Positions 2 through 9,354 of a stretch of DNA of 9,632 nt are shown piece after piece (position 1 is the stretch's first letter; each line of letters starts with the position of its first letter). This stretch comes from Anaerolinea sp. (GTDB taxonomy: Bacteria > Chloroflexota > Anaerolineae > Anaerolineales > Anaerolineaceae): positions 1 to 9,632 of the forward strand of contig PNNU01000097.1 of NCBI GenBank assembly GCA_013824385.1, in the 5' to 3' direction. The translations under genes and the position numbers were made by a program. A model generated the notes under the pieces. The model had not been told where the DNA came from and searched no databases. It saw only the letters and a list, made by a program, of their open reading frames with translations.

Positions 2-418
2 GGTACTTCTTACCCAGGTACAGTAACCGCTTTGGAAGATGTTGAAGCATGGTTAATTCCTTCACAAGTTCTTATGCTTCTCGTTAAGCAATATCCTGCC
101 CTTGCTCTAGCAATTATCCAAAGATTAAGTGAACGTGTGTTGCACTATATTGGACTTGTCGAGGATTTGTCTTTAAGGAGTGTAGAAGCTCGCCTAGCCA
201 GCACTTTGCTGCGTAATGCAGAACTGCAAAACGAGCAACTGGTTGTCTCACGCCGTGAATGGACCACGCTGGATGAAATGGCAGTACGATTGGGGACAGT
301 TCGCGATGTGCTCAGCCGGGCAATGAAAGTATTGGAGACAGAAAATCTGATCATTGTGAATAAACAATCCATCCAGCTTATTAACCCCCAAGGATTGGCT
401 GAAAGGGCAGAAAGATAG
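2..418 (+). CDS. Crp/Fnr-family transcriptional regulator, C-terminal part (5' end outside window)
   Basis: The frame is open from base 2, so this is the last 138 residues of a longer protein; the Leu (TTG) at 32 is internal. What remains is the end of the cyclic-nucleotide-like sensor domain (YPGTVTALEDVEAW), the long dimerisation helix (about residues 25-75) and a winged helix-turn-helix (about 84-130). The recognition helix reads RDVLSRAMKVLE, giving a D-x-x-S-R pattern where classical FNR has E-x-x-S-R. Proteins of this family sense oxygen, NO, CO or cyclic nucleotides, but the sensor part is missing here, so the signal is unknown. It lies upstream of, and in the same direction as, the gene cluster beginning at 702, and I infer it may regulate that cluster. 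The family call is secure; the subfamily and target are not. Confidence 0.9.
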   Translation, partial: GTSYPGTVTALEDVEAWLIPSQVLMLLVKQYPALALAIIQRLSERVLHYIGLVEDLSLRSVEARLASTLLRNAELQNEQLVVSRREWTTLDEMAVRLGTVRDVLSRAMKVLETENLIIVNKQSIQLINPQGLAERAER

Positions 419-2223: not shown

Positions 2224-3027
2224 ATGAAAAACAACACAAAATTGGGAGCTGGTTTGGCGATTATTGGCATCTTGACTGGATTGCTGTTCTTTTATCTGAT
2301 AGCAGCCCAATACAATCCTGTCATTGATGCGCATGTTGTGACTGGTCGAACAGATGAAGCCACTTCTGTCAGCATTACATTTGCTGTTCTCGGATGGATT
2401 GGAATCACTGCCGGAGCCATATGGACAGTAGCTTTTTATGGTTTCCTTCGAAAAGAAAAGTGGGCCTGGTTGTTGGGAACAATAGCCTCAACCATCCAAC
2501 TCCTGGCAGGATTTTTCCCCATGATCCCCGCCATGGATGGCGATTTACCACCTTCAACCATGATTGTGTTTATTATTGCAGCCGTATTATGGTTTGGAAT
2601 GCTTCTCATTCACGGGGTTAAGAAGAATATCATTTTATTGGCATTCGTTGCCGGCCTGGCTTATGTACTCACTTTTATTGACGGTGTCGCTCCAATTTCT
2701 AAATATGTGTCTACAAAAGGTATTGATCCGTTTTGGAACGGAGTTTATGCCATATCACAGCAAGTAAGTTGGTGGGGTGCTGCAGCCTGGGCGATTTTCA
2801 TTTTTGCCCTATTAGACAAAAAATCGTGGGCTATTCCGATGGCAATATTTGCAGGATCAATGTCCATGATAGCAGGATATCCCATGGGGATAAACAACGC
2901 TTTGTTTGAAGTGCATCGCTTCTCCATGTTCCTGCCTGCACCGCTAATCAGCACTGCCCTGGTCATTTACCTGGTCCTGCCAGGAACGCGCAAGATGCTC
3001 GAAAATTGGAATAAATCGGAATCATAA
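2224..3027 (+). CDS. Eight-helix membrane protein of unknown family
   Basis: A 267-residue, very hydrophobic protein with about eight membrane segments: near 8-28, 50-72, 79-100, 111-130, 133-153, 174-196, 201-222 and 233-254. His37, His120 and His231 lie at or near membrane boundaries. A Met-rich stretch (GSMSMIAGYPMGI) lies between helices 7 and 8. I do not recognise a family. The start has a strong GGGAGAG ribosome site at 2212-2218. The gene is followed after 20 bases by the 491-residue His-rich membrane protein, so a role as its partner subunit or quinone-interacting anchor is conceivable. That idea comes from position only. Confidence 0.8.
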   Translation: MKNNTKLGAGLAIIGILTGLLFFYLIAAQYNPVIDAHVVTGRTDEATSVSITFAVLGWIGITAGAIWTVAFYGFLRKEKWAWLLGTIASTIQLLAGFFPMIPAMDGDLPPSTMIVFIIAAVLWFGMLLIHGVKKNIILLAFVAGLAYVLTFIDGVAPISKYVSTKGIDPFWNGVYAISQQVSWWGAAAWAIFIFALLDKKSWAIPMAIFAGSMSMIAGYPMGINNALFEVHRFSMFLPAPLISTALVIYLVLPGTRKMLENWNKSES

Positions 3028-3047: not shown

Positions 3048-4523
3048 ATGCAATTAATTAAAGACCGATTAAATTTCCTCTTTAATTCTACAAAAGGGTT
3101 GATCCTGGTAGCAATCGCAATGATCGCTGTTACCACAGCCATTTGGGGAATGCTTTCAGGGCCAATGGCAGAGATGGGCGTGCGGGAAGTAGTCATCAAA
3201 CTTTTCAATATGGATTTGCTGCAAGCAGAACGAGAAGGGCGAATTATCATTCTGTATCACTCGATTGCCATGGCAGTTGTTGCGATCGAGACATACATGA
3301 TTACAAGCCTTTTGAAGATGAAAGCTTTCTTAAAGACAACCATCAACGTCATCATCACAGTCGGCTATATCTTGACCATGATCTTCGGGATGGGATTCGC
3401 CTACTTCGGTCATAATTGGGCATTCCATGGTGTATATATCTTTGGTCTTTCGTTAATCTTTTTTGCCGGTGTGCTGTTGGTGATAGCCCTCTGGCCGTGG
3501 AATAAAGAATACTATCAACCGGACAATTCCTATTCACGCACCAAAAAAGGGGTGGATATTGAGCGTGTGGCGTTTTTTGCTACCGCGCTGACCACGGTAA
3601 TTTCAGCGCTTTTTGGTGCGATCCCGGGTTCGTTTTTCGGCAATGGATTTGAAGTCTTTTTGGCCGAAAATATTATCAGAATCCCAGAAAAAACCACGAT
3701 GGAGTATTCAGTCATCGGACATTTGCACATTATGTTAGCGCTGATCGCAATCATGATCACGCTCATCATTGGTCGCTGGCTGAATTTTAAGGGAATTCTT
3801 CACAAGTTTGCCATGCCACTCATGATTCTGGGTACTGTTGTACTTAATCTCGGAGTATGGGGGGTAGCTACCCCGCTCGAACCTATCGCTCATATGGTTA
3901 TTTACACAGGCGCAACGCCCTCCATGTTGGCGGCACTCCTTCTGCTCGTTTGGAGCTGGAATAAACTTATCCGTGATGGCACAGCCAATATGCAGAAACC
4001 AACTTTCGGACAAAAACTTGGTGCATTGGTACGTGATCCACTCAAGTTTGGCCCAACATGGCAGATGCTTTATATGAACTTCACAACCAGTTTTCTCGGT
4101 ATCTTCATGGCAATACGCCTGGATGAAATATTCCGGGTCTGGCCAGCGCGCGAGGAGCGAATTGAACTGACCGGCCATTGGCATGCGCTCTCGGCGATCA
4201 TCGCCACCATCATCCTGCTTTACTATGGCAATATCATCGGATTAAAAGGAAAAGTACGCCAACTTTATGGGTGGGGAATCATCCTGTTTTCTGACATAGC
4301 GCTGGCTGGCGTGACCATCTTTGAGATGAAACGGCTTTTTATAACTGAAGCTGAACAGCAGCCGTTGGTTAATGGTCTGATGTATGCCATTGACTTTGGG
4401 CTCGGCGCTTTGTTGGTGTTGCTCGCAATCGTCATGGTTTGGAGGCTGACAGATCTTTTCAAAAAGAAAGGCAAATGGACTGTCGAAAAAGAACAGGAAC
4501 TTTCAGAGGAGGTGGCGGATTGA
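3048..4523 (+). CDS. Twelve-helix, His-rich membrane protein, divergent heme-copper oxidase / NO reductase subunit I-like
   Basis: A 491-residue protein with about twelve predicted membrane segments, the size and helix count of heme-copper oxidase subunit I. Candidate ligands are His71 in helix 2 (LYHSIAMAVV), His122 and His127 around helix 4 (GHNWAFHG), His225 and His227 in helix 6 (GHLHIM), His282 at the start of helix 8, and His377 and His379 at the start of helix 10 (TGHWHA). His in helix 2 and H-x-H in helix 10 match the low- and high-spin heme ligands of that superfamily, and G-H-x-H resembles CcoN. The adjacent His-His of helix 7 (CuB ligands) and the helix 6 H-x-x-x-Y are not seen, so the active site must differ. 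GGAG at 3037-3040 supports the start. No CuA subunit or cytochrome c gene adjoins it. It may be an NO reductase-like or other membrane heme enzyme. The family is uncertain. Confidence 0.6.
   Translation: MQLIKDRLNFLFNSTKGLILVAIAMIAVTTAIWGMLSGPMAEMGVREVVIKLFNMDLLQAEREGRIIILYHSIAMAVVAIETYMITSLLKMKAFLKTTINVIITVGYILTMIFGMGFAYFGHNWAFHGVYIFGLSLIFFAGVLLVIALWPWNKEYYQPDNSYSRTKKGVDIERVAFFATALTTVISALFGAIPGSFFGNGFEVFLAENIIRIPEKTTMEYSVIGHLHIMLALIAIMITLIIGRWLNFKGILHKFAMPLMILGTVVLNLGVWGVATPLEPIAHMVIYTGATPSMLAALLLLVWSWNKLIRDGTANMQKPTFGQKLGALVRDPLKFGPTWQMLYMNFTTSFLGIFMAIRLDEIFRVWPAREERIELTGHWHALSAIIATIILLYYGNIIGLKGKVRQLYGWGIILFSDIALAGVTIFEMKRLFITEAEQQPLVNGLMYAIDFGLGALLVLLAIVMVWRLTDLFKKKGKWTVEKEQELSEEVAD
4505..4523 (+). 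promoter_or_regulatory. Ribosome site and TTG start overlapping the upstream stop
   Basis: AGAGGAGGT (4505-4513) lies six bases before TTG at 4520-4522. The TTG overlaps the TGA (4521-4523) ending the 491-residue protein, in the order ATTGA. This decides the start of the next gene. An ATG at 4439 in that frame would give a charged extension in front of the signal peptide and has no comparable ribosome site. Confidence 0.85.
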
Positions 4524-5422
4524 AAAAATTGATTCCAACTCTCATTATCGTGATCTTTTTATTGACCTCTTGTAAACCTGTGGATCTGAATGCGCCCATG
4601 CCTGCTTTTGAAACGGGTGTTAATCCAGATGCCTGGGCAAAAATCCCCGCTGGTGAATTTTACTTTGGTCAGCATAACGACATTCAAACCACTGATGACT
4701 ATGAAATCATGGTGACCGATGTGACTACTGCTCAATACGCAGCCTTCCTCAACAAAGCCCTTGCGGATGGCTATGTCAAAGTAGATGGCGATCAAATCGT
4801 AGGTTATTATCCCGGCGATGAATTTCACGGAGTCAAACACGAGGAATTAATAGCAGAGGGAGATTGGCAATTTATTCCATTGAATGATCCGTCCCAACGG
4901 ATCAAGTTTGATGGAGAAGAATTTTCATCACAAACTGGGTATGAGAATCATCCAATGACGATGGTCACCTGGTTCGGAGCATGGGGTTACTGCGACTACT
5001 TTGATGAGCATCTGCCCTCCGAGCTCGAATGGGAGAAAGCAGCTCGTGGATCTGATACACGTCCCTTCCCCTGGGGAGAAGATATTAAGAGAGAGAACGC
5101 GAATTTTTACTCAAGCCGTGATCCTTATGAGGATATGCGTACCTTTGGCTCCCGAACTACCCCGGTTGGTTTCTACAACGGACAGTCTTATGATGGATAT
5201 ATAACCTTGGATTCTTCATCTCCTTACGGTTTATATGATATGGCTGGAAATGTCTGGCAATGGACAAGCAATGTGTACGAAGGTATGCACTATCGTTTTA
5301 TGCGCGGCGGTTCAAAAGACACCTATGATATGGACCTTCGCATCTGGACGAGGAATAACGCCACGCCCACCTATTTCAGCCCCGGTGTTGGTTTCCGCTG
5401 TGTTCGGAACACTAACAATTGA
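4520..5422 (+). CDS. SUMF1/NirV-like lipoprotein (formylglycine-generating-enzyme fold)
   Basis: A 300-residue protein read from TTG at 4520. Residues 1-17 are a lipoprotein signal (KK then a hydrophobic run) with lipobox LLTSC, giving Cys18 as the lipidated residue, so the mature protein should be anchored outside the membrane. Residues 40-297 follow the FGE-sulfatase fold: IPAGEFYFG, VTDVTTAQYAAFL, MVTWFGAWGYC, LPSELEWEKAARG (165-177), GLYDMAGNVWQWTSN (237-251), MRGGS and GVGFRCV. True FGEs use two Cys. The second is present (Cys294), but the position of the first, in the segment after RGGS, reads YDMDLR with no Cys. Sulfatase activation is therefore unlikely. NirV proteins share this fold and lie beside nitrite reductase genes; this one is translationally coupled to the His-rich membrane protein. 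I infer a structural or accessory subunit. Confidence 0.85.
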   Translation: MKKLIPTLIIVIFLLTSCKPVDLNAPMPAFETGVNPDAWAKIPAGEFYFGQHNDIQTTDDYEIMVTDVTTAQYAAFLNKALADGYVKVDGDQIVGYYPGDEFHGVKHEELIAEGDWQFIPLNDPSQRIKFDGEEFSSQTGYENHPMTMVTWFGAWGYCDYFDEHLPSELEWEKAARGSDTRPFPWGEDIKRENANFYSSRDPYEDMRTFGSRTTPVGFYNGQSYDGYITLDSSSPYGLYDMAGNVWQWTSNVYEGMHYRFMRGGSKDTYDMDLRIWTRNNATPTYFSPGVGFRCVRNTNN

Positions 5423-5468: not shown

Positions 5469-6326
5469 ATGATAAAGAGACTGTTTGAAAAAATCCGTCT
5501 ATTTTGGCCGCTGACCAAGAGCTTGCAAACTGGCTTGTTGGTAGCCACAGGCATGGCCGGATACATGTCAGCGCGCTGCCCCGTGCATAACCTTAGCACC
5601 ATGTTAGGTTTGTTTTTTAGTTTATTGGCTTCGATTGCGGGAAGCACCATTCTCAACATGTGGTGGGACCGTGATATCGATTCAAAAATGGAACGAACGA
5701 AAGCACGCCCTCTGGCATCTGGAAAGATCAAACCGAAAGAAGCCTTATGGGTTGGGTTGATTATTTCCTTCCTGGGTGTAGGCATGGCGCTTTTCATGAA
5801 TATCGGATTCGGGATAATCATCTTTGCCGGGCTGTTTTTCGATGTTGTCGTGTATACCATCTGGCTGAAACGAAGAACATGCTGGAGCATCGTTTGGGGC
5901 GGGATTTCAGGAGGTATGCCCATTCTTGCCGGCAGATACCTCGGTGTAGGTGCATTAGACTGGATTGGAGTTGTCCTGGCGTTGGGAATCCTGTTATGGA
6001 TCCCGACTCACATCTTAACCTTTAATATGCGTTATGCTAAAGACTACCTTAATGCTGAAATTCCAACTGTCGTATCAGTTTATAGTGTAAAAGTAAATCA
6101 CGCAATAATTGCTGGTTCGAGCATCCTTGCAGCTATTGCAATGGGGATGGCGTCGTGGGGAATTGGAATAACATGGGGCTGCTTGCGTTTGCTAAGTGTC
6201 CTTTCGGTAGGGTTGATTTTGTTAGCAATATTTTTGATCTTTCGTCCATCAGAACGCATCAACTTTGGACTTTTTAAGTATGCTTCAATCTATATGCTTT
6301 CATCAATGCTTTTGATGGTCGTTTAA
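5469..6326 (+). CDS. UbiA-superfamily prenyltransferase, heme O synthase (CtaB)-like
   Basis: A 285-residue, multi-helix membrane protein. The first Asp-rich motif is N63-x3-D67-x3-D71 in NMWWDRDIDSKMERTKARPL, the prenyl-diphosphate/Mg site of the family and very close to CtaB. It is followed by YTIWLKRRTCWSIVWGGISG, also CtaB-like. The second motif region reads IPTHILTFNMRYAKDYLNAEIPTV. Here the usual PHF-W of CtaB is replaced by THILTF, while D-Y-x-x-A-x-x-P is kept. CtaB adds a farnesyl group to heme B to form heme O for oxidases. The altered second motif leaves the acceptor open. Its place next to the His-rich membrane protein suggests it supplies a prenylated heme to it. The start has a poor ribosome site, and the stop overlaps the next ATG (TAATG). 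Confidence 0.8.
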   Translation: MIKRLFEKIRLFWPLTKSLQTGLLVATGMAGYMSARCPVHNLSTMLGLFFSLLASIAGSTILNMWWDRDIDSKMERTKARPLASGKIKPKEALWVGLIISFLGVGMALFMNIGFGIIIFAGLFFDVVVYTIWLKRRTCWSIVWGGISGGMPILAGRYLGVGALDWIGVVLALGILLWIPTHILTFNMRYAKDYLNAEIPTVVSVYSVKVNHAIIAGSSILAAIAMGMASWGIGITWGCLRLLSVLSVGLILLAIFLIFRPSERINFGLFKYASIYMLSSMLLMVV

Positions 6327-6808
6327 TGGAAATCAATCTTGACCAGTTACGTAGATTTAAACCCTCTGTACACAAAGAATGGTTATACCTTTCTGCAGGT
6401 TTTGCCTGGTTTGGGGTGGGAGTATTGTTAATCAGCTTTGCTGTAGGTTGGCTAAAACCAGACATTGCTTCTAACATGCTTCTATTAGTTTCATCAGGTC
6501 TAGCTTTAGCTGGCTGCATCTATCATTTTGGATTTTCAAAGCTGGCAAAAAAGAATATTAATCGTATAGGTAATTTGAAAGGCGAAAAGGTCTGTTTATT
6601 TGCATTTCAGGGATGGACGAGCTATCCGCTGGTTTTGATTATGATGTCTCTTGGCATCTACCTGCGCACTTATTCACCGATTCCAAAATCCTTTTTAGCC
6701 ACCCTGTATCTGGGAATCGGTGGGGGTTTGTTTTCTGCCAGCCTGCATTACTTTGAAAAAGCAGCACGCGTTCATCATAATAAAAATCCAGAGACGAAAA
6801 TTCCATGA
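6326..6808 (+). CDS. Four-helix membrane protein of unknown function
   Basis: A 160-residue protein with a soluble N-terminal stretch (1-17), membrane segments near 18-41, 46-68, 97-113 and 121-142, and a basic His-containing tail. A conserved-looking block, FQGWTSYPLVLIMMSLGIYLR followed by IPKSFLATLYLGIGGGLF, forms the second helix pair. I see no catalytic motif. Its ATG overlaps the stop of the prenyltransferase by one base, and its own stop overlaps the next ATG (ATGA). The three are therefore translated together, which suggests they act together in assembly or cofactor handling of the same membrane complex. Confidence 0.75.
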   Translation: MEINLDQLRRFKPSVHKEWLYLSAGFAWFGVGVLLISFAVGWLKPDIASNMLLLVSSGLALAGCIYHFGFSKLAKKNINRIGNLKGEKVCLFAFQGWTSYPLVLIMMSLGIYLRTYSPIPKSFLATLYLGIGGGLFSASLHYFEKAARVHHNKNPETKIP

Positions 6809-7410
6809 AAATAACTATCCTGGATCGAATTCTACTTTTCATAACAAGCTTGGTCTCCGCTTACCAGATTGCAGTTGGTATTGAAGGTTTCAGCACATTA
6901 CCAATGATCTCCTACTCAATAGCTTTTGGTGTTTTGCTTATCGCTACATTGTTGATGCTTATCCTTGGCCTTGAGGTTCTGGATTCAGCTATCGTGGTCA
7001 TCGTTTCGACGATCATTCCACTCAGTCTTGCAACAGGACTCGTCTGGCAACATCTTCCAAATTTCAAGCTCCCTTATTTAATTTTTGCCATAGCTGGTCT
7101 ATTTGCAATAATCGTTACCAGAGCAATTACCATTAAAAACAGGCTGCCCTTATTTGTTCTGATCTTTGTGCATGGGGTTGCTGGATTGACAATTTTCCTT
7201 GTCCCGCTCATGCTGGTGCTTTCAGGTCGAATGCCACTCGGTTATATTCTGCTGAGTATTGGTGGCGCACTCATGGGTTTGGGTGGACTACTTTTGGCAT
7301 TGCACAAAGCAGGTAAACCTTATCTTTCACGCAAGACGATTATCCAAATTCTGCCTGGGTTGTTGCTATTACTGACAGTTCTATTTGTGATTGGTTTTGC
7401 GTTGACATAA
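6805..7410 (+). CDS. Seven-helix membrane protein of unknown function
   Basis: A 201-residue, extremely hydrophobic protein with about seven membrane segments (near 8-26, 33-55, 60-82, 89-109, 115-138, 144-167, 178-200). His83, His123 and His167 lie within or at the ends of helices and could be metal or heme ligands, but no known signature surrounds them. The start ATG overlaps the stop of the previous gene by four bases, without a strong ribosome site of its own, which points to translational coupling. No family is recognised. Confidence 0.75.
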   Translation: MKITILDRILLFITSLVSAYQIAVGIEGFSTLPMISYSIAFGVLLIATLLMLILGLEVLDSAIVVIVSTIIPLSLATGLVWQHLPNFKLPYLIFAIAGLFAIIVTRAITIKNRLPLFVLIFVHGVAGLTIFLVPLMLVLSGRMPLGYILLSIGGALMGLGGLLLALHKAGKPYLSRKTIIQILPGLLLLLTVLFVIGFALT

Positions 7411-7464: not shown

Positions 7465-8166
7465 ATGAGAAACAAATGGTGGGCAAAACTATTGCGGATC
7501 ATTGGAATCGTGTTCATGAGTCTCACGGCAGCGTTTACCCTGATGGGCGGCGCAGGTACATCTTGTGTTGCACTTAACCCAACAGGATTTGGAGGTAAAT
7601 TTGCAGGAATCGCCTCATTCCAATGGCTGTGGATCTTGTTCGTTCTGATCGGTGTTGCTGCCGGAATACTCGGAGTGCGTGCACTTGTGTTACTCATCAA
7701 AGCAAGCAATAAAGCTTATCGTTCTGCTATCATCGCCTTGTTAATTGGAACGATCATCAATGCGATCCATATGGTTGCATCGCGTTCACTGCGGGGTGCA
7801 TCCATGCCAGTGGATGGCGTTTTATATACGAATGTTATTACGTTGATAGTATTTCTTCTCTTCCGTATTCCTGGAATTTGGAAATGTGTGAATTTTGAAA
7901 ATCCTACTGAAAACGAACAAGTAGGTAGAAAAGCAGCAGCTTTTTCGTTGATGATTGTTGGGTTACTCACCCTCACGATACAGTTTATGATGGCTCCGAC
8001 ACATACCATTGATGGGATAAATTATTCAAATGTTTGGCATTTGGTTTTATCCATTATTGGCGTAGGATCAATTCTAGCGGGAGTCCTTACTGCTATTCCT
8101 AACCGCTTCTCCCTAATTAATGTCAAGGCTTTTTGGACGCTCAAAATCTTACAAGAAAGAAATTAA
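7465..8166 (+). CDS. Six-helix membrane protein of unknown function
   Basis: A 233-residue protein with about six membrane segments (near 10-30, 52-78, 86-104, 119-137, 153-174, 181-203). A conserved-looking loop after helix 1 reads GGAGTSCVALNPTGFGGKFAG. His102, His170, His182, Cys34 and Cys141 are the notable polar residues near membrane faces. I have the impression that similar hypothetical proteins occur in Anaerolineae, but I cannot verify this. It has the strongest ribosome site in the window (AAGGAGGA at 7453-7460) and follows the previous gene by 54 bases, so it may be expressed partly on its own. It is the last intact gene of the run. Confidence 0.8.
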   Translation: MRNKWWAKLLRIIGIVFMSLTAAFTLMGGAGTSCVALNPTGFGGKFAGIASFQWLWILFVLIGVAAGILGVRALVLLIKASNKAYRSAIIALLIGTIINAIHMVASRSLRGASMPVDGVLYTNVITLIVFLLFRIPGIWKCVNFENPTENEQVGRKAAAFSLMIVGLLTLTIQFMMAPTHTIDGINYSNVWHLVLSIIGVGSILAGVLTAIPNRFSLINVKAFWTLKILQERN

Positions 8167-8456: not shown

Positions 8457-9354
8457 TTAATCATCCAAAGTTGCCCCTGCCCTTTCAAGGTCATTTGCAC
8501 TTGGTTCAATATATCTACGAGTCGATTGGATAGATTCATGGCCAGCAATTGTAGCAACTTTTTCAATAGTTACGGCCGGTGTTTATTAAGATTTTACAAA
8601 AAGTGTGTCTCAAGCTGTGCGGAGTTGCTTCAATATTGCAAATTCTAGCTAATTCATCAAGAAATCGTTGTATCTCATTTGGCGTCAGTGCATTCCCCCT
8701 TTGCCCAGAAAATATTTCATTGTGAGACGTTGATCCACGGATTGATTAGCATTCAGTTAATGCAGCCCTGGCGTTTAGAATGAGAGGGATGGTACGCATT
8801 TTTCTTCCTTTTCCTTATCGAACAATCAGGTTGCTTTTTCTCTCTGAAAGATCTACATCATTCATTGCTAAATCACTCAATTTCCCTATACGCAACCCGC
8901 TATTTAATAACAGAATTACTATACTTCTATTTCGAATAGCATTTCTTTTTGCTGATTCTGTTTTAGCAGCATTGAAATCTTTATCTAATTGTCGTAATAA
9001 TGCTGATTGTTCCTTCTTCTCCAACCAGCGTATTCCAGAACTCTGTTCCTTTATTCCATGTAATGACGATTATGGGTTCGAGTCAAAATATTTGCTTGAT
9101 ACTGTCCAAGCTCCAAATGCAAGTAAAGCAGCGATTTTCCTATTTAATGTGGCTGCAGCTGCTATTTCCACTGTCAGCAAATAGGATCGATATTCCCTCC
9201 CATCAATACTTGTAAACCCTTTTGGTGAAAATTTTTCACCATTCGTCTGCTCAAACCATTTTTCAAACAACCGAAGGTCCTGTAAATACCCTTCTACTGT
9301 TTTTGAAGACCTGTCCAAGACTTCTAAATACTTTTCGAAAGGTAAATAATCCAT
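8457..9354 (-). pseudogene. Decayed tyrosine recombinase / phage-type integrase (XerC-like)
   Basis: Reading the minus strand from ATG at 9354 (ribosome site AAAGGA eight bases upstream) gives one recombinase of about 298 codons once damage is ignored. The N-terminal SAM-like domain reads SSKTVEGYLQDLRLFEKWF. The catalytic part keeps Arg in LLLNSGLRIGKLSDL, His and Arg in TPHSLRHTF, His in IAGHESIQSTRRY and the Tyr nucleophile in RRYIEPS, ending ATLDD. Three in-frame TAA codons interrupt it (plus-strand 9070-9072, 8815-8817 and 8746-8748). A single extra base near 8572-8579 shifts the frame: GGCCGT where GGCGTA would restore GVTIEKVA. Length and all active-site residues show it was once complete. 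It is now inactive as a full-length enzyme and marks a former mobile element or recombination site next to the cluster. Confidence 0.93.

What the first reader, a model, noticed from the sequence alone, without database searches (positions are those of the whole stretch)
3048..4523. Twelve-helix protein with two GHxH motifs: possible undescribed branch near heme-copper oxidases
The protein has subunit I length and helix count. His71 in helix 2 and His377/His379 in helix 10 sit where low- and high-spin heme ligands are expected, yet the helix 7 His-His pair is absent. Instead there is a second H-x-H in helix 6 (His225/227), a His at helix 8 (His282) and a His pair flanking helix 4 (122/127). 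A different metal centre or a different number of hemes is possible.
Basis: partly seen in the sequence, partly recalled or inferred. Interest (0 to 1): 0.72.

Follow-up and report, generated by a model that had tools for sequence, protein, structure and literature searches.

The report
Divergent heme-copper-oxidase-fold membrane protein family
A large, unnamed family of bacterial membrane proteins folds like the enzymes that breathe oxygen or nitric oxide, but holds a different set of histidines and travels with its own heme-making gene, which points to an undescribed respiratory or gas-detoxifying enzyme.

Summary

An FGE-like lipoprotein follows in 55 of 56 loci, a heme O synthase in 53 of 56. 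In genomes without COX1, the synthase occurs in 9 of 9 carriers and 1 of 16 non-carriers. A sister clade lies beside NOR-like, flavodiiron or hemerythrin genes in 7 of 12 loci. I read it as a heme-O-using HCO-fold oxidoreductase with a non-canonical active site; nitric oxide is the likeliest substrate, not shown. Ten literature searches found no description.

The parts
3048..4523 (+). 12-TM HCO-fold protein (491 aa), the focal gene
3258..3260 (+). His71 codon, TM2; position of the low-spin heme ligand of HCOs
   Evidence: 322 of 322, place checked; role inferred from fold and spacing
3426..3428 (+). His127 codon, start of TM4; no counterpart among the HCO metal ligands (recalled)
   Evidence: 322 of 322
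3720..3722 (+). His225 codon, TM6, first of HxH; by pseudo-threefold symmetry would face the third, normally empty pore
   Evidence: 322 of 322; repeat alignment to His377; orientation inferred
3726..3728 (+). His227 codon, TM6, second of HxH; probable counterpart of the TM6 CuB/FeB His
   Evidence: 322 of 322; repeat alignment to His379; role inferred
3891..3893 (+). His282 codon, TM7/TM8 junction; lone His near the slot of the HCO His-His pair (55 residues after His227; 49-51 in fetched HCOs)
   Evidence: 322 of 322; spacing
4176..4178 (+). His377 codon, TM10; position of the high-spin heme ligand
   Evidence: 322 of 322
4182..4184 (+). His379 codon, TM10; position of the second low-spin heme ligand
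   Evidence: 322 of 322
4520..5422 (+). FGE-sulfatase-domain lipoprotein, probable operon partner. The mechanical ORF starts at 4439; the probable start is the TTG at 4520, overlapping the focal stop codon, with AGGAGG at 4507-4512 (inference)
   Evidence: PF03781 E 2.5e-36; Cys45 of the long ORF 64 of 64 (lipobox reading is mine); start region; within 600 bp downstream in 55 of 56 loci
5469..6326 (+). heme O synthase CtaB/CyoE-like prenyltransferase
   Evidence: TIGR01473 E 5.3e-59, 200.3 bits, under its curated cut-off of 210.3; 53 of 56 loci
6326..6808 (+). small membrane protein, no Pfam family
6805..7410 (+). small membrane protein with one invariant His (His123, 50 of 50)
7465..8166 (+). 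membrane protein often found downstream (29 of 65 loci within 3 kb, same strand)
2224..3027 (+). 267-aa membrane protein directly upstream, no family (relatives in 30 of 65 loci within 3 kb, same strand)
2..418 (+). C-terminal part of a CRP/FNR regulator; in the nearest genome a COX1 + COX2-like pair lies directly upstream of it, outside the window

Best explanation
This is a heme-binding membrane oxidoreductase with the fold of HCO subunit I, in a family of its own. Inferred mechanism: electrons, probably from quinol, enter a low-spin heme held by His71 (TM2) and His379 (TM10). They pass to a second heme, probably heme O made by the adjacent CtaB, held by His377. On the far side of that heme stand His227 (TM6) and His282 (TM7/8 junction) in place of the three-His CuB site, with or without a metal, where a small gas is reduced. 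Nitric oxide is the likeliest substrate, as detoxification or respiration. His225 and His127 may form a further site in the third pore. Shown: fold (by model), His invariance, operon, co-occurrence with CtaB, NO-related neighbours in the sister clade. Inferred: cofactors, electron donor, substrate. My odds by layer: HCO-fold heme protein 0.9, heme O 0.7, nitric oxide 0.4; the confidence figure is for the whole, with NO as best guess.
For: Fold. His invariance. Heme O: CtaB within 2.5 kb downstream in 53 of 56 loci. Nine of 30 carrier genomes tested hold no COX1 protein; all nine have a CtaB at E < 1e-57 and none has CtaA. Of 16 non-carriers without COX1 over the cut-off, one has such a CtaB, the other 15 nothing better than 5e-17 (Fisher P 5e-6, relatedness not corrected). 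Same genus: 6 of 6 clear carriers against 0 of 9 non-carriers. Nitric oxide: 7 of 12 sister-clade loci carry a NOR-like COX1 gene, a DUF438-hemerythrin-PAS gene or a flavodiiron gene on the same strand within 3 kb (the reference genes came from two of these loci, so 5 of 10 without them). The genome nearest the window has such a COX1/COX2-like pair 3.6 kb upstream.
Against: No similarity by sequence profile to any of seven HCO alignments. In the window's own clade the NOR-like gene lies within 8 kb in only 1 of 65 loci, the near-copy of the window, so the NO reading leans on the sister clade. The Glu four residues after the TM6 His, present in the three fetched cNOR/qNOR, is absent. Only two His could serve as CuB-type ligands. 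By the curated cut-off of TIGR01473 only 5 of the 9 carriers without COX1 would count. CtaB is not near in 3 of 56 loci; genome G022 has CtaB and no focal gene. The three loci of an intermediate clade lack CtaB and the NO-related genes nearby. Genome G008, a weak focal match (27% identity, E 2e-5), has no such CtaB.
Confidence: 0.5

Rival explanations
1. A multiheme electron-transfer protein without a catalytic site: His227 is a direct axial ligand of the second heme, making it bis-His, and the protein passes quinol electrons to a partner, such as the NOR-like enzyme in the sister clade or the lipoprotein in the window's clade.
For: Seven invariant His and no HxxxY, HxxxE or His-His motif; a NOR-like COX1 gene beside the focal gene in 4 of 12 sister-clade loci.
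Against: The window's clade shows no obvious redox partner: no CxxCH heme motif in the 12 proteins of the window checked, and the FGE-like lipoprotein has no cofactor known to me. Heme O is, from recall, a feature of HCO active sites rather than of electron carriers.
Confidence: 0.25
2. An oxygen reductase or oxygen scavenger with an unusual active site.
For: HCO fold, heme O synthase, CRP/FNR-type regulators within 8 kb in 40 of 65 loci.
Against: No Tyr four residues after either TM6 His and none conserved across the family in TM7; that O2-reducing HCOs need such a Tyr is recalled. Carriers include Syntrophaceticus schinkii, a strict anaerobe by recall. Cytochrome bd occurs in 19 of 30 carriers and 26 of 44 non-carriers, so it says nothing either way.
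Confidence: 0.12
3. A gas- or heme-sensing or NO-buffering membrane protein working like NnrS, not a turnover enzyme.
For: NO-related neighbours in the sister clade; a NnrS-like gene in 4 of 66 loci of the window's clade.
Against: No PF05940 match at E <= 0.2 in 62 members; no profile similarity to the NnrS-like neighbours.
Confidence: 0.08
4. A heme-O-handling or heme-modifying protein serving CtaB, in place of CtaA.
For: Tight linkage with CtaB; no CtaA in the nine carriers without COX1.
Against: The fold is that of HCO enzymes, and in those nine genomes no COX1 client of the heme was found.
Confidence: 0.05

Closest known systems
cbb3-type oxidase subunit I (CcoN)
   Different: 9-11% identity in these alignments; no TM7 His-His; extra His225 and His127; no profile match to a cbb3/NOR alignment; no CxxCH protein among the window's genes checked.
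cNOR/qNOR (NorB, NorZ)
   Different: No HLWVE motif, no His-His pair, no detectable sequence similarity.
gNOR-like COX1 proteins (TM6 'WWGLDMVADGN'; the label gNOR is recalled, not tested)
   Same: Beside the focal gene in 4 of 12 sister-clade loci and near it in the genome nearest the window.
   Different: These match PF00115 (E about 1e-64) and keep the His-His pair; the focal protein does neither.
NnrS (PF05940)
   Same: Polytopic membrane protein with conserved His and NO context (recalled).
   Different: No family match and no profile similarity.

Membership tests
Heme-copper oxidase superfamily, subunit I | 12-TM fold of subunit I | tested here: met
   Two AlphaFold models; 50 of 50 listed rows in each comparison are HCO enzymes or supercomplexes containing one
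Heme-copper oxidase superfamily, subunit I | Sequence match to COX1 (PF00115) | tested here: not met
   Not among the 16 families matched at E <= 0.2 by 62 members; hhalign to seven HCO alignments at most 4.4%, while four of six HCO-HCO controls gave 97-99.9% and two failed
Heme-copper oxidase superfamily, subunit I | Low-spin heme ligands, one His in TM2 and one in TM10 | tested here: met
   His71 and His379, 322 of 322; heme binding itself not testable
Heme-copper oxidase superfamily, subunit I | High-spin heme ligand, first His of the TM10 HxH | tested here: met
   His377, 322 of 322
Heme-copper oxidase superfamily, subunit I | CuB/FeB site: one TM6 His and a His-His pair at the end of TM7 | tested here: not met
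   TM6 His present; the pair is replaced by a single His282, 55 residues on (49-51 in fetched HCOs)
Heme-copper oxidase superfamily, subunit I | Bound heme and metal in the purified protein | not testable with these tools
   No cofactor data or model coordinates
HCO oxygen reductases | His-Tyr cofactor (Tyr in TM6 or TM7; recalled) | tested here: not met
   TM6 is GHLHIMLA (Met229, Ala231 at +4), TM7 has no Tyr conserved across the family
cNOR/qNOR | Glu four residues after the TM6 His (HLWVE) | tested here: not met
   The three fetched NORs have HLWVE; the focal family does not
NnrS | PF05940 match | tested here: not met
   No match at E <= 0.2 in 62 members; hhalign to NnrS-like neighbours 0.36%
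HCO-type heme O use | Dedicated heme O synthase | tested here: met
   by association only

The most novel reading that the evidence does not exclude
A branch of the HCO fold with three metal sites and no classical copper site: a low-spin heme (His71/His379), a second heme (His377) faced by His227 and His282, and a third heme or metal held by His225 and His127 in the pore that is empty in known HCOs. It would be a separate line of gas-reducing enzymes, widespread in Chloroflexota, that may have split off before the known oxygen and nitric oxide reductases diverged.
Probability: 0.25. Interest if true: 0.9.

Novelty: new variant of a known kind. Interest (0 to 1): 0.74.

Why it matters
HCO-type enzymes carry most aerobic respiration and much of the biological N2O production (recalled). 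Surveys that start from COX1 profiles would miss this family: 3,222 related proteins at E <= 0.001 among 7,999 scored candidates; none of the 120 listed there carries a precomputed Pfam domain, and those with a source name are 'hypothetical protein'. It occurs in 54 of 298 genomes sampled from one class. If it reduces NO, the NO and N2O budget of the habitats of these Chloroflexota lacks an enzyme. If it does not, it is an HCO-fold heme protein with another use. Either way it gives an outgroup with an altered active site for asking which parts of the HCO centre are needed for which chemistry.

Tried and rejected
His122 as part of a metal site: rejected, not conserved. Sequence-level link to HCOs by hhalign, whole length and by helix region: nothing; two of six HCO-HCO controls made from few sequences (NOR vs A 13.6%, NOR vs two B sequences 6.1%) failed too, so the negative is weaker than it looks. 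PDB sequence search with sequence and profile: no relevant hit. Internal repeats as an 'ancestral' mark: TM5-8 against TM9-12 match (95.9%, E 5e-9; 57.8 bits against at most 24 in nine reversed controls), but canonical HCO groups show such matches too (cbb3/NOR 93.8% over 103 columns, gNOR-like 95.6% over 76), so the repeat is not special; control matches of 12-16 columns there come from overlapping segments. TM1-4 against the other two thirds gave nothing. A denitrification island: a 571-aa neighbour in L171 that I first took for a copper nitrite reductase is an Fe-S protein near reductive dehalogenases. NnrS relation: none. Cytochrome bd co-occurrence: uninformative. NrfA co-occurrence: not completed. 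Papers: ten searches listed no paper that I recognised as describing this family; I saw search listings, and passages only of PMC8756737, PMC6094997, PMC11388526 and PMC12569097. The main survey of NO reductases (PNAS 2024, doi 10.1073/pnas.2316422121) is not held, so I cannot exclude that it mentions this family.

Full report
What is there. The window carries, on one strand, a CRP/FNR regulator (cut at the window's start), a BON-domain protein, a small membrane protein, a cupin, a CopD-like membrane protein (30.9 bits, just under the Pfam cut-off), a 267-aa membrane protein, the focal gene, an FGE-domain lipoprotein, a heme O synthase and three more membrane proteins. The lipoprotein's likely TTG start overlaps the focal stop codon behind an AGGAGG.

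The family. P0001 matches no Pfam or NCBIfam model at E <= 1 and no PDB sequence at E <= 10. A protein search found 3,222 relatives at E <= 0.001 among 7,999 scored candidates, 120 of them listed. A genome scan gave 52 loci, mostly Anaerolineae/Chloroflexota, also Calditrichia/Caldithrix, Melioribacteraceae, an Aminicenantes bacterium and Syntrophaceticus schinkii. Carriers were 14 of 41 relatives (two of them partial or weak), 13 of 251 genomes of the phylum and 54 of 298 genomes of a class. A second clade at 32-40% identity was found, and three loci stand between the two (42-43% to the first reference, 48-49% to the second).

Histidines. His71, 127, 225, 227, 282, 377 and 379 are invariant in 322 of 322 sequences of at least 400 aa; so are Arg65, Tyr119, Asp330, Glu370 and Trp409. 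His122 (180 of 322) and His252 (233 of 322) are not.

The active site. The TM2 His and the TM10 HxH stand where HCOs hold their hemes. Of 15 HCOs printed, 13 have a TM6 His, followed 49-51 residues later by the His-His pair; two gNOR-like ones have no TM6 His. From the pair to the TM10 HxH it is 86-105 residues. In P0001 the lone His282 lies 55 residues after His227 and 95 before His377; in clade 2 the figures are 53 and 90. So His282 sits near the slot of the pair, about one helical turn later, at the TM7/TM8 junction. Neither Tyr nor Glu stands four residues after a TM6 His. TM5-8 and TM9-12 are detectable repeats (95.9%, E 5e-9; 86-87% in each clade alone; reversed controls 24 bits or less against 57.8), aligning His225 with His377 and His227 with His379; canonical HCO groups show similar repeats, so this is not special. 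From the pseudo-threefold arrangement of HCOs (recalled), His227 then faces the heme of His377, like the CuB His, and His225 faces the pore between TM2 and TM6, where TM4 brings His127.

Heme O. Without duplicates, 65 loci of the window's clade were counted. Of the 56 with at least 2.5 kb downstream, 55 have the FGE-like gene within 600 bp and 53 have CtaB within 2.5 kb, same strand; the exceptions for CtaB are L034, L057 and L061. Of 30 carrier genomes tested, 21 have a COX1 protein and nine have none (completeness 87-99% for five of the nine, not told for the four reached through loci). All nine have a CtaB at E < 1e-57, five of them over the model's curated cut-off. It lies beside the focal gene in seven; in G294 a fragment lies beside it at a contig end and the better match elsewhere; in S. 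schinkii it is on another contig. None of the nine has CtaA. As contrast I took 44 genomes without a focal match: 22 have CtaB over the cut-off, 28 a COX1 protein over the cut-off. Of the 16 without COX1 (one with sub-cut-off matches, G031) only G022 has CtaB, with no focal gene in the 19 kb around it. Seven genomes with COX1 lack CtaB, five of them of the window's genus, so COX1 alone does not explain CtaB there. In that genus CtaB goes with the focal gene: 6 of 6 clear carriers (G006 with its CtaB on another contig) against 0 of 9 non-carriers; the doubtful G008 has none. These genomes are related, so the P values (5e-6; 5e-4 for 5 of 5 against 0 of 9) overstate independence.

Substrate. In clade 2, 12 loci: NOR-like COX1 in 4, DUF438-hemerythrin-PAS in 6, NDH-2 in 4, flavodiiron protein in 1 within 3 kb, CtaB in 4 within 2.5 kb, all on the same strand; 7 of 12 have at least one of NOR-like, DUF438 or flavodiiron, 4 others have CtaB, one has none. 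The reference genes came from L078 and L079, which are two of the seven, and from the window's near-copy. Several contigs are short. In the window's clade such neighbours are rare: NOR-like gene 1 of 65, flavodiiron 1 of 65, hemerythrin 2 of 65 within 8 kb on either strand, NnrS-like gene in 4 of 66 loci screened (the query's own locus included). The three intermediate loci show none within 3 kb. That DUF438-hemerythrin and flavodiiron proteins serve NO or O2 defence is recalled. Nitric oxide is therefore the best guess, not a result. The absence of the O2-reductase Tyr (its need recalled) speaks against oxygen.

Verdict. A real, large, unnamed family with the HCO fold, the HCO heme-ligand positions and a changed distal site, tied to heme O synthesis. 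It should not be filed as an HCO member in the strict sense, since COX1 match and His-His pair were tested and not met; it very probably works like one in binding hemes in the same frame. Its chemistry is open.

Noticed in passing
9070-9354 (-): N-terminal SAM-like domain of a phage-integrase-type recombinase (PF02899 E 1e-8) in an AT-rich stretch (GC 0.34-0.37 from about 8000 on).
   Followed up: partly
4520-5422 (+): FGE-sulfatase-domain lipoprotein with invariant Cys45, His134, His171 and Cys321 in the numbering of the long ORF (64 of 64); it does not show the two-cysteine motif I recall for formylglycine-generating enzymes.
   Followed up: partly
L171:8109-9326 (+): NnrS-like 405-aa protein (PF05940 E 4e-4, below cut-off) with a HIHANNWGF motif upstream of a focal homologue; relatives in L016, L017, L033 and L172; weakly similar to HCO profiles (73% with all HCOs pooled).
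   Followed up: partly
L168:8568-9467 (-): CtaB 58% identical to the window's in G022, a genome where neither COX1 nor the focal gene was found.
   Followed up: partly
L106:10340-12408 (-): COX1/COX2-like pair whose TM6 lacks His ('WWGLDMVADGN') beside the regulator; similar pairs beside clade 2 focal genes in L079 and L152.
   Followed up: partly
6805-7410 (+): Small membrane proteins related to this 201-aa ORF occur upstream as well as downstream of focal homologues, within 3 kb on the same strand in 46 of 65 loci; one His is invariant (50 of 50). Function unknown.
   Followed up: no
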